A DNA stretch of 64,000 nt from a virus: positions 1-64,000 of the IMG/VR virus record IMGVR_UViG_3300042561_001378; one strand, given 5' to 3'. Position numbers and translations under genes: made by a program. Of this stretch, positions 56,136-60,954 are shown piece by piece (position 1 is the first letter of the stretch; each line of letters opens with the position of its first letter). Below the pieces are notes generated by a model that worked only from the letters and a program-made list of their open reading frames with translations, made no database searches and was not told where the DNA came from.

Positions 56136-58414
56136 GCCGCCTAGCCCAGATCGCTGATACTGACCTTGATGCCCTGCTATACGACATCCGCACAGCTACC
56201 AAAATTTACGACAAACGAGACTTTAATAAAAAAGTAGTGGGCAAGGCTGAGCAAAAAATGCTCAAACTGGTTCAGGCCGTCGCCGTCAAAGAACGCCAGG
56301 ACATTGAAGACGAAGACCGCTACACCCTGCCCAGCGGTATCACTATTGAGCAGCACCTATTTAACTTGACATTTTGCGACAAAGAACGGCCCATCAAGGT
56401 GATTGACCACGCCTTTAGGCAGTACGACCCAGAGTATGGGTACTGGGCCAGCATTCCAGACGAAGAACTAGAACAGCGGGTGCTCCAAAACGCTGAGCTA
56501 TCCCATTACCCACCGACCAAGACCGGGCCAGGGCGATCGCTGGCAACGGCGGCGAATGTGGAAAAGGCGATGAAGTTTGCGGGTAAGAAGTTATTCGCTT
56601 CGACCCACAAGACCAACAGCAAACACCTGATCGCATTTCGGAACTATACCGTTTGCACCAAGACAGGCGACACCAGAGACCACAATCCTGATTACCACAT
56701 CACCACATGCCTACCCTATGACTATGCCCCTGGGGCTGCCTGCCCCCCGGCGATGCTGGGCTACATTGCCAGTAGCTTTGGTGACTCCCAGGTTGAATAC
56801 GTCCGGGCTGCGCTAGGGCTGATCCTCGACCTGACGGCCCCTGACCGGTTTATCCATCTAACGGGTTCAAGTGGTTCTGGCAAGGGGGTTTTTACCCGGC
56901 TGATTATGAAGTTCTTTGGGTCTGAGTCGGTAGGTTCACCCAACAATTTCAAGATTTTTGCCAACCCCGACCAGGTGCACCAATACCTATCCGGGAAAAG
57001 ACTACTGGCCATTGATGACATCGTAGGGTTTATTGGTGAAGAGATTGGCCGGTTTTACACCGCCGTCGAGCGCACCGCGATGAATGCCCGGTGTTTATTC
57101 CAACCCAAGGGCTATACCCAGCAGTTTGATTGCCGGTATACCGTGGCTAGCGTGGGTCAGCTATCGGCCAAATACAGCAACTCTAAAGGCTGGGAACGGC
57201 GGGTTTTCCCATTGCCGACGGTTAGGGCATCCAGGCAAGAGGAGGACGAACGGCTAGAAATTGAACTAGAGAACTGCATAGCCGACATCGTGAGCTGGGC
57301 TTTGGGTCAGGATAAATCCCTGAGAAACGATATCCTACGCCACCCCGCCAAATACAATCCCGCCGCCGCCGAGTACTTCAGAGATGCCGCATTCAGCAGC
57401 AGCAGCGCCTGGGCCTTTATTGACGAATGCCTAGAGCCTAGAATCCCCAGCGTTACCGATGCCTTTGACGACCAGGGCGTCAACGAGACTGAACTTTACC
57501 TGGCCTACAAGGCCTATACCGCTGCCGTGGGTAAGCCGCCGATGAGCCGTGATGGGTTTGTCCATGAGCTGCGCCAGGTGCTGCCCCTGAACTGGGTCGA
57601 TCGCCGGTCGGGTGGCAAGGTCAAGCGGCGGTTTGTTTATATCCGATTGCGCCCTGCCTTTGAGTTTGGTGAGTTTGGGGCGACCTGCAACATGGAGGCC
57701 CGAGGTTATGACGGGGTGCTCCAGTTTAGGGAATGGTCAGCCAAGTATGGGTTTATGCATCCATACGACCCCGGTGATCTTCTTGAGCTTCTTTATGGTT
57801 GCCGCCTCAAGTGGAATGATCACCCACGCCCATGGATAGCTGAGTCAAACGATGGTGAATCGCTAGTGTGCATCCATTCAGATGATGAAATTGGCTCAAG
57901 GCTATTCGCCGAAGTCCCAGCATCCGAGCTAAGTCGATGGCCAAACGACCCACCTCAGCCACCCCCATCAGAGCCTTGTGCAGACCATGCAGGGCAAACA
58001 GGCCTGCTTTCTAGCGTAGAACCCGTGTGTGTTTCCGAAAAAATTCCGCCGCACACACAGCCAAATAATTTCAACGAAGGCCTGCATGGCCTGCACACCC
58101 CGCACAGCACAGACCCAGAGCCCGTTAGCCCGTCACAAGGTTGTTTTGATGGCGATGGGCAAGTGGTGACGCCATGGCTTACCCCTGGCAAACCAGCGTG
58201 GTGGACGGATTTTGAGCAGCGATTGATCGAGGCCACCACCTGGGAGCAATTGCAGCAGGCTAAGACCAAGACCTCAGCGAGCAGGCGCAGCCAGATTATG
58301 AACACCTGGGACAGGGATGGGCGCTACGAATGGCTCAAGGGCAAGGCCGCACGGTTAGAGACTGAGGCTCAGGGCCAGCAACAGCAGGGGCTCAACGTGG
58401 GGGGTATGGAATGA
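56132..58414 (+). CDS. SF3 (D5-like) replicative helicase with inserted repeat element
   Basis: 760 residues. DRFIHLTGSSGSGKGVFTRLIMKFFGSES (Walker A near 242), GKRLLAIDDIVGF (Walker B), YTVASVGQL (sensor Asn replaced) and KGWERRVFPLP. The C-terminal HTH-like region runs to about residue 510. Residues about 616-660 are encoded by copy C of the dispersed element, read without a stop. The last 40 residues (TWDRDGRYEWLKGKAARLETEA) recur in a chimeric gene at 60147. ATGA overlaps at both ends. Confidence 0.85.
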   Translation: MSRLAQIADTDLDALLYDIRTATKIYDKRDFNKKVVGKAEQKMLKLVQAVAVKERQDIEDEDRYTLPSGITIEQHLFNLTFCDKERPIKVIDHAFRQYDPEYGYWASIPDEELEQRVLQNAELSHYPPTKTGPGRSLATAANVEKAMKFAGKKLFASTHKTNSKHLIAFRNYTVCTKTGDTRDHNPDYHITTCLPYDYAPGAACPPAMLGYIASSFGDSQVEYVRAALGLILDLTAPDRFIHLTGSSGSGKGVFTRLIMKFFGSESVGSPNNFKIFANPDQVHQYLSGKRLLAIDDIVGFIGEEIGRFYTAVERTAMNARCLFQPKGYTQQFDCRYTVASVGQLSAKYSNSKGWERRVFPLPTVRASRQEEDERLEIELENCIADIVSWALGQDKSLRNDILRHPAKYNPAAAEYFRDAAFSSSSAWAFIDECLEPRIPSVTDAFDDQGVNETELYLAYKAYTAAVGKPPMSRDGFVHELRQVLPLNWVDRRSGGKVKRRFVYIRLRPAFEFGEFGATCNMEARGYDGVLQFREWSAKYGFMHPYDPGDLLELLYGCRLKWNDHPRPWIAESNDGESLVCIHSDDEIGSRLFAEVPASELSRWPNDPPQPPPSEPCADHAGQTGLLSSVEPVCVSEKIPPHTQPNNFNEGLHGLHTPHSTDPEPVSPSQGCFDGDGQVVTPWLTPGKPAWWTDFEQRLIEATTWEQLQQAKTKTSASRRSQIMNTWDRDGRYEWLKGKAARLETEAQGQQQQGLNVGGME
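57977..58109. mobile_element. Dispersed nested-palindrome element, copy C (inside helicase gene)
   Basis: Inverted relative to copies A and B. TTGTGCAGACCATGCAGGGC at the left end, CCTGCATGGCCTGCACA at the right; the inner GTGTGTGTTTCC...CACACACAG is kept. The reading frame of the helicase passes through without a stop, adding about 44 residues rich in Pro, Asn and His. Confidence 0.8.
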
Positions 58415-60147
58415 TGGCCGCCTATTACAACGAGATCGACCCAAACGCAGCGCAGTGGTTGAGGGAATTAATCAAGATGGGCGCGATCGCCCCTGGTGAC
58501 GTAGACGAACGGAGTATTGAAGATGTCTTTCCAGATGACCTTAGAACTTACAGTCAATGCCACTTCTTCGCCGGAGTCGGGGGATGGTCACTCGCCCTCA
58601 GGCTTGCAGGATGGCCAGACGATCGCCCCGTGTGGACAGGTAGCGCCCCCTGCCAACCGTTCAGCGCGGCAGGCAAAGGAGGCGGGATTGCTGACGAGCG
58701 GCACCTATGGCCAGCGCTCTTTTGGCTCATCAGCCAGTGTCGCCCTGAGACAGTCTTTGGTGAGCAAGTTGCATCAAAGGATGGCCTCGGATGGTGGGAT
58801 ATTGTTTCGGCTGACCTGGAAGGAGCGGGTTACGCCTGCGGGGCAAACGATCTATGCGCTCCGGGGCTCGCCGCAGTCGCCAAAATCCCAGTTGACTTTG
58901 TTGATGAATTTACTGGAAAACCATTTACGGTCTTACTCCGAGATGTACCCAGCAGTGCGCCCCATCTTCGTCAACGCCTTTACTGGGTGGCAAACACCGA
59001 CAGTCCAGGACGGCAATGGCAGGGACAGACACAATCAGCGGGGCGGGGGCATAACCCTATCGCTATTGGGGGAGAGCAGGTTAGCCCCCTGGCCAACGCC
59101 CAATGTCCCGAACGGGGGGCGATCGCCGAAGGATGGGGCAGTGAGCAGCACGGGGCAGTCGGAGAACGGCAAGCGCCAAGTGGATCTACAAATGGCAGCA
59201 CGGTTAGCACCCTGGCCCACCCCGAAAGTGCAGAATGCGAATGCACCAGGGGAACACGGGCAGGGCGGGCAGGATCTACAGACCGTCGCCCTTGGGACAA
59301 CCCCATCTGGCTCCCCTGCGCCGACGGAAAAGCGCGGCCAGCTCAATCCAGCATTTTCAAGATGGTTGATGGGATATCCTGTAGAATGGGATATAGCGGC
59401 TATCAATGCGTATCGCTTAAGGAAGAAGAGGAAATAGAAGATGGGCCGACCACGAAAGCTAGATCCAGAGAAGTACTGCGAAATGTGCGGGATTCTGTTG
59501 ATCCGGAAGGTTTACGGGGGTGTGAGGTTGGAAGATCTTTCGACTTTCAAGAAGCGGAAGTATTGCAACCAGAAATGCATGGGCGAAGCGATGGAGGGGA
59601 CGATCAAGGTAGAGAACCCCAAGAATTACCGCCGTCAATCTGTGAAGACCCGCAAGGGGAATTGCGAGAAATGCGGCAGGGGGGATTCTTTGCTGCATGT
59701 CCATCACAAAGACCACAATCCCATGAACAACGACCCGTTGAACTTGACGACGTTGTGCGGTTCCTGTCACCGTCTTTGTCATTCGCCCAACTACACGGAG
59801 ATGGGCGAACCGAATCAGCCTTGCAGAATTTGTGGCAAACAATCGGCGAGGCAGCAGCTTTGCAATACCCACTTAACCAGGCTGAAGAAGCATGGCGATC
59901 CCTTGCTGAAGAAGGTAAAGCAAGGCTCAGAATGGGTTTTGACCCGTGTAGATGGGTAGAAATTCAGCAATACACCAATCCGTTGGTTAATGGGCTACCC
60001 CGTGGAGTGGGATATAGCGGCGATATTAGCCCACAGACAGCGCAAAACACGGCAGAAGGGCGGGGAATGAGACTAAAGGGGTATGGCAACGCCATAGTCC
60101 CTCAACTGGCCGCTGAGTTTGTTGCAGCAACTATGGAGTGTCTGTAA
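58411..60147 (+). CDS. C5 cytosine methyltransferase, overprinted and interrupted in frame
   Basis: Frame 1 encodes 578 residues. Motif I: CHFFAGVGGWSLALRLAGW (51-69). Motif IV: GSAPCQPFSAAGKGG. Motif VI-like: VFGEQVASKDG. Motif VIII: APHLRQRLYWVAN. DNPIWLPCADGKARPAQSSIFKMVDG, then, after about 200 residues that fit no methylase, NPLVNGLPRGVGYSG...RLKGYGNAIVPQLAAEFVAA (motif X). The extra 200 residues coincide with an HNH gene in frame 2 and a duplicated segment. Whether the long form is active is unclear. TAATG overlap with the next gene. Confidence 0.75.
   Translation: MMAAYYNEIDPNAAQWLRELIKMGAIAPGDVDERSIEDVFPDDLRTYSQCHFFAGVGGWSLALRLAGWPDDRPVWTGSAPCQPFSAAGKGGGIADERHLWPALFWLISQCRPETVFGEQVASKDGLGWWDIVSADLEGAGYACGANDLCAPGLAAVAKIPVDFVDEFTGKPFTVLLRDVPSSAPHLRQRLYWVANTDSPGRQWQGQTQSAGRGHNPIAIGGEQVSPLANAQCPERGAIAEGWGSEQHGAVGERQAPSGSTNGSTVSTLAHPESAECECTRGTRAGRAGSTDRRPWDNPIWLPCADGKARPAQSSIFKMVDGISCRMGYSGYQCVSLKEEEEIEDGPTTKARSREVLRNVRDSVDPEGLRGCEVGRSFDFQEAEVLQPEMHGRSDGGDDQGREPQELPPSICEDPQGELREMRQGGFFAACPSQRPQSHEQRPVELDDVVRFLSPSLSFAQLHGDGRTESALQNLWQTIGEAAALQYPLNQAEEAWRSLAEEGKARLRMGFDPCRWVEIQQYTNPLVNGLPRGVGYSGDISPQTAQNTAEGRGMRLKGYGNAIVPQLAAEFVAATMECL
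58523..59437 (+). CDS. Overprinted protein in the +1 frame of the methyltransferase gene
   Basis: 304 residues from ATG at 58523, entirely inside the methyltransferase gene in frame 2. It starts MSFQMTLELTVNATSSPESGDGHSP and ends LNPAFSRWLMGYPVEWDIAAINAYRLRKKRK; I recall the NPAFSRWLMGYP end in uncharacterised phage proteins found with such methylases. Strong support: a second copy of the end at 59981-60025 encodes the identical RWLMGYPVEWDIAAI with nine codon changes, all silent in frame 2 but changing residues in frame 1. The function is unknown. Confidence 0.75.
   Translation: MSFQMTLELTVNATSSPESGDGHSPSGLQDGQTIAPCGQVAPPANRSARQAKEAGLLTSGTYGQRSFGSSASVALRQSLVSKLHQRMASDGGILFRLTWKERVTPAGQTIYALRGSPQSPKSQLTLLMNLLENHLRSYSEMYPAVRPIFVNAFTGWQTPTVQDGNGRDRHNQRGGGITLSLLGESRLAPWPTPNVPNGGRSPKDGAVSSTGQSENGKRQVDLQMAARLAPWPTPKVQNANAPGEHGQGGQDLQTVALGTTPSGSPAPTEKRGQLNPAFSRWLMGYPVEWDIAAINAYRLRKKRK
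59441..59959 (+). CDS. HNH endonuclease gene inside the methyltransferase locus
   Basis: 172 residues. GNCEKCGRGDSLLHVHHKDHNPMNNDPLNLTTLCGSCHRLCHS is a complete HNH with two CxxC knuckles (CEKC, CGSC), His-His and Asn. N-terminal CEMCG...YCNQKC and C-terminal PCRICGKQSARQQLCNTHLTRLKKHG are extra zinc motifs. It begins 3 nt after the stop of the overprinted gene and is followed by a second copy of that gene's end, as expected of a mobile homing-type gene. Same frame as the overprinted gene. Confidence 0.8.
   Translation: MGRPRKLDPEKYCEMCGILLIRKVYGGVRLEDLSTFKKRKYCNQKCMGEAMEGTIKVENPKNYRRQSVKTRKGNCEKCGRGDSLLHVHHKDHNPMNNDPLNLTTLCGSCHRLCHSPNYTEMGEPNQPCRICGKQSARQQLCNTHLTRLKKHGDPLLKKVKQGSEWVLTRVDG
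59960..60070 (+). pseudogene. Second 3' end of the overprinted gene
   Basis: Frame 2 from 59960 to the TGA at 60068-60070 reads ...NTPIRWLMGYPVEWDIAAILAHRQRKTRQKGGE. It lacks a start and repeats the end of the gene at 58523. It was probably the original 3' end, separated by insertion of the HNH gene, which brought or created the first copy. Confidence 0.7.
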
Positions 60148-60320
60148 TGTTCTTCCCAAAATCTCATAGTCTTCCCGTGATGGGAGACACGGTACGCATC
60201 GACCACAACCCCGAACCCTACACCTGGGACAGTGATGGCCGCTACGAATGGCTCAAGGGCAAGGCAGACAGGTTGGAGACTGAAGCAAATAACGCAACAC
60301 AAGGGAGCTTAGGGCAATGA
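60147..60320 (+). CDS. Chimeric small protein, 57 aa
   Basis: The first 26 residues (MFFPKSHSLPVMGDTVRIDH...) equal the start of the gene at 60451, apart from one residue; the rest (TWDSDGRYEWLKGKADRLETEA) equals the end of the SF3 helicase. The DNA repeats (60148-60223 with 60451-60526; 60222-60290 with 58303-58370) are nearly identical, so this is a recent recombination product beside the methyltransferase insertion. Probably without function of its own. Confidence 0.6.
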   Translation: MFFPKSHSLPVMGDTVRIDHNPEPYTWDSDGRYEWLKGKADRLETEANNATQGSLGQ

Positions 60321-60451
60321 CATTTCTAATCAGCATTGGGCAGTGGAGCGGGATTTATTTTTATAACGGGTTTACCACTAGGCTGTGCCTTGGGTGGGTA
60401 GCTTTCACGTTCATTCCATTAGACGACACGGAAATAATGCAGCACAAATAA
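60317..60451 (+). CDS. Conserved-type small phage protein, 44 aa
   Basis: MTFLISIGQWSGIYFYNGFTTRLCLGWVAFTFIPLDDTEIM matches a pattern I recognise in many phage small proteins (F.I..G.WGG.Y...G...R.CLGW.A.TF.P.D.D). ATGA and TAATG overlaps on both sides. Function unknown. Confidence 0.7.
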   Translation: MTFLISIGQWSGIYFYNGFTTRLCLGWVAFTFIPLDDTEIMQHK

Positions 60452-60954
60452 TGTTCTTCCCAAAATCTCATAGTCTTCCCGTGATGGGAGACACGGTACG
60501 CCTCGACCACAACCCCGAACCCTACACCGTGGGCATGGTGACACCCGATCGCACCTGGTATCACCTCATAGAGCTAGATGAGCCGGTGCGGGTGGAGTGT
60601 TTGGCCTGGTATCCACGGGTGGGGGACAGGGTAGAGGTGCTGTTTTGCCCCTACTTCAAATGGCTACGAAGCCGCTTTGACCATCACTGGTCGAGGTGGT
60701 GGGCGGAACCGGGGGAGCGGCGGGCGATCGAGGCGACCCTAGACCGGATCAAAGCCGCGATGAAAGAGGGTGTTCGCTACCGGGTGGGTGACCTGATGAA
60801 GGTTGAGGGCGACTTAGCAGAGGTGCAGTTTGGCAGCACCGCCGAAGTGTTGCCGATGAATTGTGTAGCAGTAGCGAGGGTTTTGATAGATGCAACAGTT
60901 AAAGGCAACACCGGGGACGACACAGCGGATCGGACTGGTCGAGAAGCCGCCTAA
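60451..60954 (+). CDS. Hypothetical protein, 167 aa
   Basis: MFFPKSHSLPVMGDTVRLDHNPEPYTVGMVTPDRTWYHLIELDEPVRVECLAWYPRVGDRVEVLFCPYFKW...: two small barrel-like segments (GDTVRLDH...; GDRVEVLF..., GDLMKVEGDLAEVQFG), suggesting repeated SH3-like units. Its start is the donor for the chimeric gene at 60147. Function unknown. Confidence 0.6.
   Translation: MFFPKSHSLPVMGDTVRLDHNPEPYTVGMVTPDRTWYHLIELDEPVRVECLAWYPRVGDRVEVLFCPYFKWLRSRFDHHWSRWWAEPGERRAIEATLDRIKAAMKEGVRYRVGDLMKVEGDLAEVQFGSTAEVLPMNCVAVARVLIDATVKGNTGDDTADRTGREAA

What the first reader, a model, noticed from the sequence alone, without database searches (positions are those of the whole stretch)
58411..60147. Methyltransferase gene fully overprinted by a second gene whose frame is the one under selection
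Frame 1 encodes a C5 methyltransferase with motifs I, IV, VIII and X; frame 2 (58523-59437) encodes a 304-residue protein. A duplicated 45-bp segment allows a direct test: copies at 59366-59410 and 59984-60028 encode the same 15 residues RWLMGYPVEWDIAAI in frame 2 with nine differing codons, all silent. In frame 1 the same changes replace most residues (for example VDGISCRM against VNGLPRGV). So in this stretch purifying selection acts on frame 2. The end of the methylase domain is thus constrained by two proteins.
Basis: seen in the sequence. Interest (0 to 1): 0.8.

Follow-up and report, generated by a model that had tools for sequence, protein, structure and literature searches.

The report
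Endonuclease gene hidden inside overlapping methyltransferases
A phage gene for a DNA-methylating enzyme carries its partner subunit in a second reading frame, and a DNA-cutting parasite gene has moved into the same stretch, apparently without breaking either protein: it brought a new end for one subunit and left the other subunit's frame free of stop codons all the way through.

Summary
The overlap is real, but the finding is larger than reported. Frame 1 (alpha, C5-methyltransferase motifs I, IV, VIII, X) and frame 2 (beta, motif IX) form a nested two-subunit C5 methyltransferase, organised like M.EcoHK31I. The pair occurs in all ~90 related viral loci read and ~200 phage records. Both frames are under purifying selection, not frame 2 alone. 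Copy 1 is a grafted beta C-terminus that ends beta just before the HNH start codon. Copy 2 is the displaced resident end. Alpha's frame stays open through the HNH gene to motif X. In 29 non-redundant loci with this insertion the HNH gene has 0 stops in alpha's frame where 175 are expected; T-ending codons before AA/AG/GA codons number 0/802, against 751/2317 elsewhere. The insert is patchily distributed (at least 11 forced changes on the alpha tree). The closest published case is the ShiLan 'hidden HNH' in mycobacteriophage methylases, which has a different host gene and a different HNH. I rate this a new variant of that known kind. Homing activity and alpha read-through are inferred, not shown biochemically.

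The parts
58411..60147 (+). alpha subunit gene (frame 1, 578 aa): C5-MTase motifs I-VIII, residual TRD region, about 207 residues read through the HNH insert, then motif X. Its start overlaps the stop of the upstream D5-type primase/helicase gene (58414).
   Evidence: PHROG 363, 1.7e-67; M.HhaI
58567..58584 (+). alpha motif I, FAGVGG
   Evidence: sequence; invariant F53-A54-G55 and G57 in the alignment
58648..58665 (+). alpha motif IV, PCQPFS (catalytic Cys)
58960..58980 (+). alpha motif VIII region, PHLRQRL
60079..60147 (+). alpha motif X region, GYGNAIVPQLAAEFVAATMECL, after the insert and still in frame
   Evidence: high-confidence helix 564-577 in the model
58523..59437 (+). beta subunit gene (frame 2, +1 of alpha, 304 aa), nested in alpha
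   Evidence: 52 of 52 beta homologues match PHROG 1008
59342..59389 (+). beta motif IX, LNPAFSRWLMGYPVEW
   Evidence: same motif directly before motif X in single-chain MTases such as L115
59360..59437 (+). grafted beta C-terminus carried by the insert (copy 1, RWLMGYPVEWDIAAI + NAYRLRKKRK + TAG)
   Evidence: same design in the other inserted loci read
59427..59431 (+). AGAGG, Shine-Dalgarno-like, in beta's last codons, 9 nt before the HNH ATG
   Evidence: sequence
59441..59959 (+). HNH endonuclease gene (172 aa, same frame as beta, +1 of alpha), starting 3 nt after beta's stop
   Evidence: (PHROG 1271, 3.7e-12)
59981..60070 (+). displaced resident beta C-terminus (copy 2, RWLMGYPVEWDIAAILAHRQRKTRQKGGE*), untranslated in frame 2 as far as can be seen, still used in frame 1 by alpha

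Best explanation
The locus is a nested two-subunit C5-cytosine methyltransferase invaded by a mobile HNH endonuclease gene. Alpha (frame 1) supplies motifs I-VIII and X. Beta (frame 2) supplies motif IX and probably the rest of the target-recognition part. The HNH gene entered at the motif-IX codons of beta. The element keeps both subunits usable by two different means. (1) At its left end it carries its own version of beta's C-terminus, with motif IX, a basic tail and a stop codon; that tail also holds the likely ribosome-binding site, and the HNH gene starts 3 nt after beta's stop, so HNH is probably translated by termination-reinitiation from beta. (2) Its length is a multiple of three and its codons avoid every stop in alpha's frame, so ribosomes reading alpha pass through the whole HNH gene and still make motif X, leaving about 207 extra, probably disordered, residues between the TRD region and motif X. 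The displaced resident beta end remains as copy 2. Shown here: the anatomy, the conservation, selection on each frame, stop avoidance, patchy distribution and an occupied/empty pair. Inferred: cleavage and homing at the motif-IX site, coupled translation, and activity of the insert-bearing alpha with beta.
For: Alpha and beta are nested in the same relative frame in all ~90 viral loci inspected and beta homologues occur in 206 phage records. Both frames are under purifying selection. HNH genes lie at the motif-IX position, in +1 of alpha, with alpha open throughout, in 32 of 37 HNH-bearing loci. Stop avoidance in alpha's frame: 0/802 versus 751/2317 T-ending codons (Fisher 1.6e-114); window alone 0/40 versus 34/88 (2e-7); HNH relatives outside these loci 289/1059 versus 845/2471. 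Expected stops 174.9, observed 0. HNH start codon 0, 3 or 6 nt after the beta stop in 20 of 21 loci read with a stop, SD-like pentamer in 13 of those 20; five others are beta-HNH fusions. Patchiness: 20 changes of HNH presence on the alpha tree, at least 11 forced by well-supported branches. HNH divergence does not follow alpha (r = 0.13, p = 0.21), the right-hand beta remnant follows alpha (p = 0.007), the left tail leans towards HNH (p = 0.03; 0.055 given alpha). Occupied/empty pair L089/L041: 541 bp replaces 16 bp directly after the LMGLP codons, net 525 = 3 x 175. Counter-case L180: a second copy of the motif IX-X region follows the HNH, and the MTase frame there does contain stops. Alpha model resembles M.HhaI and M.HaeIII; no Rfam intron; no intein domain in Pfam.
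Against: No protein, RNA or cleavage data. The beta model is low-confidence (pLDDT 62) and matches no solved structure, so beta as TRD plus motif IX rests on the motif and the M.EcoHK31I precedent. Alpha's frame inside the insert shows only weak amino-acid constraint beyond stop avoidance (N/S 0.88/0.44 versus 1.19/0.68 for the third frame). The left-tail/HNH association is borderline (n = 15). No close relative of this window was available; nearest alpha about 50% identical.
Confidence: 0.8

Rival explanations
1. Simple overprinting with an in-situ duplication: beta is the selected frame, alpha in this stretch is tolerated, and the 45-bp repeat is a local duplication that diverged under selection on frame 2.
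For: All ten differences are silent in frame 2, and frame 1 differs at as many residues as expected without constraint.
Against: An HNH gene lies between the copies, at the same site as in ~30 other loci; copy 2 is beyond beta's stop; alpha is constrained over the overlap; alpha's frame avoids stops throughout the insert.
Confidence: 0.04
2. The insert is a self-splicing intron or an intein, so alpha is restored by splicing.
For: Insertion at a conserved site, patchy distribution and an endonuclease gene are typical of both.
Against: No Rfam match; the only Pfam domain found in alpha is DNA_methylase, no intein domain; an intron would not need stop avoidance in alpha's frame (0/802). The published analysis of the similar ShiLan insert also found neither.
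Confidence: 0.05
3. The HNH protein is not a homing enzyme but a working partner of the methyltransferase, such as a restriction nuclease.
For: HNH nucleases occur in restriction systems; five loci have beta and HNH fused in one frame.
Against: Most alpha/beta pairs lack it; presence changes at least 11 times on the tree; HNH relatedness does not follow alpha; relatives of the same HNH sit in unrelated MTases and, for a more distant HNH, in terminase inteins; the graft of a host-gene end is a signature of invasion.
Confidence: 0.08
4. Alpha is no longer made as one chain: it ends inside the insert or motif X is made separately, and the open frame is a relic.
For: The read-through segment is predicted disordered and weakly conserved.
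Against: Zero stops where 175 are expected across 29 loci, many highly diverged, means continuing selection for an open frame.
Confidence: 0.05

Closest known systems
M.EcoHK31I (two-polypeptide C5-MTase, YGGCCR)
   Same: The larger subunit holds motifs I-VIII and X, the smaller one motif IX (PMC3404938); here alpha and beta divide the motifs the same way.
   Different: Phage-borne; alpha's TRD region here is predicted disordered; an HNH gene is inserted. Sequence homology could not be tested, since the M.EcoHK31I sequence and the original paper are not held.
M.AquI (two-polypeptide C5-MTase)
   Same: Split C5-MTase with motifs I-VIII in the larger subunit.
   Different: In M.AquI the small subunit carries IX and X; here X stays with alpha. 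A relative found here, L106, does show the AquI-like division.
ShiLan domain: hidden out-of-frame HNH in mycobacteriophage methylase gp65, and Pacc40 gp60 (PMC11855218)
   Same: HNH gene out of frame inside a phage methylase, host frame free of stops, no splicing element, patchy distribution, first residues of the insert resemble those after the insertion site.
   Different: ShiLan gp65 is a DPPY-type amino-methylase with an unlike HNH in another frame. Here the host is a C5-MTase with two overlapping subunits, the 5' repeat is a replacement beta end with motif IX and a stop, and the HNH start lies next to beta's stop, which offers an answer to their open question of how the hidden HNH is translated.
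Free-standing phage HNH homing endonucleases (mobE and others)
   Same: MobE splits nrdA of phage Aeh1, which still makes working reductase, and T4 mobE overlaps the upstream stop codon, suggesting coupled translation (PMC2988022).
   Different: MobE splits the host gene in Aeh1; here one subunit is re-ended and the other is read through.
Fungal mitochondrial atp6 insertion carrying a foreign C-terminus plus endonuclease gene (Allomyces; from memory, not checked)
   Same: An endonuclease element that brings a replacement 3' end for its host gene.
   Different: Mitochondrial, single host frame, no read-through.

Membership tests
Two-subunit C5-MTase of M.EcoHK31I type | Motifs I-VIII and X in the larger chain | tested here: met
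   Motif conservation and M.HhaI profile and fold matches
Two-subunit C5-MTase of M.EcoHK31I type | Motif IX only in the smaller chain | tested here: met
   LNPxxSRWLMGxPxxW strongly conserved in beta; same motif precedes motif X in the single chain of L115. No profile match of beta to solved MTases, so it rests on the motif
Two-subunit C5-MTase of M.EcoHK31I type | Smaller chain encoded in another frame over the larger gene | tested here: met
   That M.EcoHK31I itself is nested is from memory; the original paper is not held
Two-subunit C5-MTase of M.EcoHK31I type | Sequence homology to M.EcoHK31I | not tested
   sequence not in the collections used
Two-subunit C5-MTase of M.EcoHK31I type | Both chains needed for methylation | not testable with these tools
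   needs expression and methylation assay
ShiLan-type hidden HNH insertion | HNH gene out of frame inside a phage methylase gene | tested here: met
ShiLan-type hidden HNH insertion | Host frame stop-free over the insert, no intron or intein | tested here: met
   38; 3
ShiLan-type hidden HNH insertion | Insert start resembles the sequence after the insertion site | tested here: met
   copies 1 and 2, 35 of 45 nt and 15 of 15 frame-2 residues identical
ShiLan-type hidden HNH insertion | Same HNH lineage and same host methylase family as ShiLan gp65 | tested here: not met
   ShiLan gp65 is DPPY-type with an unlike HNH; ShiLan not among the matches of the window HNH
Homing endonuclease element | Patchy presence at a conserved site, moving independently of the host gene | tested here: met
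Homing endonuclease element | Nicks or cuts the empty allele and is copied into it | not testable with these tools
   needs biochemistry or mixed infection
Group I/II intron | Ribozyme core | tested here: not met
   no Rfam match up to E = 1
Intein | Splicing domain in the host frame | tested here: not met
   only DNA_methylase found in alpha by Pfam

The most novel reading that the evidence does not exclude
There is a widespread class of homing endonuclease elements that live inside overlapping or single C5-methyltransferase genes without splicing. They encode the endonuclease in the +1 frame of a host gene whose own frame is kept open through it and, where a second overlapping subunit exists, carry a replacement end for that subunit that doubles as the endonuclease's ribosome-binding site. 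The same trick occurs inside inteins of phage terminases.
Probability: 0.6. Interest if true: 0.75.

Novelty: new variant of a known kind. Interest (0 to 1): 0.62.

Why it matters
It shows a route by which a selfish gene can invade a place that already codes for two proteins and apparently damage neither, so one stretch of DNA is read as an endonuclease and as part of a methyltransferase subunit. It turns the published 'hidden HNH' curiosity of a few actinophages into a recurrent, statistically testable pattern in ~30 loci, gives a reason for the unexplained repeat at the insert's start, and proposes how the hidden gene is translated. It also means that many phage genes annotated simply as 'DNA methyltransferase' or 'hypothetical protein' are half of an overlapping pair or hide an endonuclease.

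Tried and rejected
In-situ duplication: rejected because of the HNH insert. Intron: Rfam empty. Intein: no domain. Homology of beta to solved structures by profile or fold: nothing, inconclusive because the model is poor. ShiLan as a true relative: host gene and HNH differ. First motif scans used too narrow patterns. One summary of the HNH stop null crashed after printing the main table and was redone by codon shuffling. Original M.EcoHK31I paper not held.

Full report
What is in the window. The window lies in a 78,143-base virus record. Frame 1 from 58411 to 60147 is open for 578 codons and carries C5-methyltransferase motifs I, IV, VIII and X. Frame 2 from ATG 58523 to TAG 59437 encodes 304 residues and matches PHROG 1008, 'DNA methyltransferase', at 7e-25; frame 1 matches PHROG 363 at 1.7e-67. 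Three nucleotides after beta's stop, in the same frame, a 172-residue HNH endonuclease gene runs from 59441 to 59959 (PHROG 1271, 3.7e-12). Downstream of it the end of beta appears a second time.

The copies are at 59360-59404 and 59981-60025, 621 nt apart. They encode the same 15 residues in frame 2 with nine codons and ten nucleotides different, all silent. Frame 1 differs at 8 of 14 residues, which is what random frame-2-silent recoding gives, 8.25 +/- 0.73. The test is sound as far as it goes, but copy 2 lies behind beta's stop and behind the HNH gene, so its silent differences most likely arose while it was the end of a working beta. Copy 1 is best seen as a graft from another beta that came with the endonuclease.

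The overlapping pair. Close and distant relatives were taken from viral contigs. In all ~90 loci alpha is accompanied by beta in +1, nested inside it, and beta generally ends with LNPxxSRWLMGxPxxW, the motif-IX signature, while alpha holds I-VIII and X. Beta homologues were found in 206 phage records, and 52 of 52 sampled betas match PHROG 1008. The division of motifs is that of M.EcoHK31I: larger chain I-VIII and X, smaller chain IX (PMC3404938). In single-chain C5-MTases such as L115 the same kind of motif (LSPRFTEFMMGLPDGW) stands directly before motif X. Alpha profile and model match M.HhaI and M.HaeIII. The beta model is poor and matches nothing.

Which frame is selected. In 45 independent pairs of homologues, differences were sorted by their effect in both frames. 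N/S in alpha is 0.61 (where beta changes) and 0.33 (where beta is silent); in beta 0.88 and 0.47; in the unused third frame 1.28 and 0.77. Doubly silent changes are 3.0 times expectation. Alpha is more constrained than beta in the first half (0.42/0.22 against 0.81/0.43) and about equal in the second (0.83/0.48 against 0.88/0.51). Both proteins are maintained.

The insert recurs. Other alpha/beta loci proved to have an HNH gene in the same place. A scan with six aligned HNH proteins returned 79 viral and 27 genomic loci. In 37 loci an alpha-like N-terminus lies upstream of the HNH; in 32 of them HNH is in +1 of alpha and alpha continues without a stop past the HNH. L106 and L107 keep the frame before HNH open but have the N-terminal part in another frame; L117 and L127 are other layouts; L180 has stops and carries a second copy of the motif IX-X region after the HNH. 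Of 56 HNH relatives with 210 nt or more, 45 have no stop in the frame before HNH, including all 28 with motif X following in that frame.

Selection for an open alpha frame. A stop in alpha's frame arises where an HNH codon ending in T is followed by a codon starting AA, AG or GA. In 29 non-redundant inserted genes, with 3,119 codons that could end in T, T occurs 0 of 802 times before such codons and 751 of 2317 times elsewhere (Fisher 1.6e-114). In the window alone the figures are 0/40 and 34/88. In HNH relatives outside such loci they are 289/1059 and 845/2471. Synonymous shuffling predicts 174.9 stops in alpha's frame; none is present. For the window 8.7 are expected, P <= 5e-5. Amino-acid constraint in alpha's frame inside the insert is weak, and the model shows it mostly disordered while the motif-X helix is confident. 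I conclude that alpha is read through the endonuclease gene and that the segment acts as a tolerated spacer.

Fate of beta and translation of HNH. In 20 of 21 loci read with a beta stop, the first start codon in the HNH frame lies 0, 3 or 6 nt after it (L121 is the exception: its first start is followed at once by a stop); five loci have beta and HNH fused. An SD-like pentamer lies 3-14 nt before the start in 13 of those 20, within beta's basic tail; in the window it is AGAGG at 59427-59431. Termination-reinitiation is the natural reading, as proposed for T4 mobE (PMC2988022).

Mobility. On a tree of 119 alphas, 33 with HNH, presence needs 20 changes, at least 11 forced by well-supported branches; the bootstrap had not settled, so the number is rough. 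In 15 loci HNH relatedness does not follow alpha (r = 0.13, p = 0.21); the right-hand beta remnant follows alpha (partial r = 0.32, p = 0.007) and not HNH; the left tail leans to HNH (p = 0.034, or 0.055 given alpha). L089 and L041, about 91-95% identical around the site, give an occupied and an empty allele: 541 bp replaces 16 bp directly after the LMGLP codons. These are marks of a homing element that targets the motif-IX codons.

What is known. Arsenault, Gosselin and Gogarten 2025 (PMC11855218) described the ShiLan domain, an out-of-frame HNH inside a mycobacteriophage methylase whose frame stays open, with an unexplained similarity between the insert's start and the sequence after the site, and left open how the HNH is translated. 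I read ShiLan gp65: it is a DPPY-type amino-methylase with an unlike HNH in another frame. The present case is the same kind of thing in another enzyme class, with a two-subunit overlapping host, a functional reason for the repeat, and a plausible translation route. I found no report of the alpha/beta/HNH arrangement in the papers held, which leave out most subscription journals and preprints.

Limits. There is no wet evidence for read-through, coupling, methylation or cleavage. The pair counts treat changes singly and do not correct for multiple hits. No close relative of the window was available. M.EcoHK31I homology could not be tested.

Noticed in passing
L135 2318-2695, L139 488-871, L144 2501-2959, L152 2336-2671: HNH genes of a more distant family lie in +1 frame inside inteins of phage terminase large subunits. 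The intein frame, with its N- and C-terminal splicing motifs, has no stop over the HNH where 3.5-8.2 are expected: inteins whose endonuclease is encoded out of frame.
   Followed up: partly
L206 1339-3144, L178 1339-3183, L179 1219-3084, L119 3-1229, L115 1432-3144: Single-chain C5-MTases of a Staphylococcus phage, two bacterial MAGs and two viral contigs hide an HNH of the same family next to motif IX, with the MTase frame open.
   Followed up: partly
L106 1354-3135 and L117 2423-3001: L106 shows an AquI-like split pair (I-VIII in one frame, TRD-IX-X in another) with the HNH hidden in the second chain. L117 has an HNH at motif VIII of another overlapping pair, with motif VIII duplicated around it.
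   Followed up: partly
L010 2889-4600 (Cyanophage Cy-LDV1): An endonuclease VII-like gene follows alpha and ends with a second copy of alpha's motif-X tail (GPQVAAEVIGAYLDVRGAA), a possible parallel case with another nuclease family.
   Followed up: no
L011 3900-5750 (Cylindrospermopsis phage Cr-LKS3): The DPPY-type DNA methylase downstream of alpha/beta appears to hold a ShiLan-like hidden HNH (FVRSDGYVAVRV...LEHRVVMEAHLGR) in another frame, in a cyanophage.
   Followed up: no
L039, L063, L012 and the epsilon15 group (L009, L020, L033 and others), between motifs IX and X: Beta tails and alpha linkers with partial repeats (for example AARLGRV...SNRVGRLKGYGN) but no HNH; these look like scars of lost insertions.
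   Followed up: no
L127 611-2458: A C5-MTase that appears to carry both an intein (CFVAGTPVLTKRG...VHNC) and a downstream hidden HNH.
   Followed up: no
60138-60320 and 60385-60954: Two nearly identical stretches (MFFPKSHSLPVMGDTVR(I/L)DHNPEPYT...) follow alpha, and the tail of the upstream primase gene (TWDRDGRYEWLKGKAARLETEA) recurs in the first of them, suggesting local duplications around the locus.
   Followed up: no
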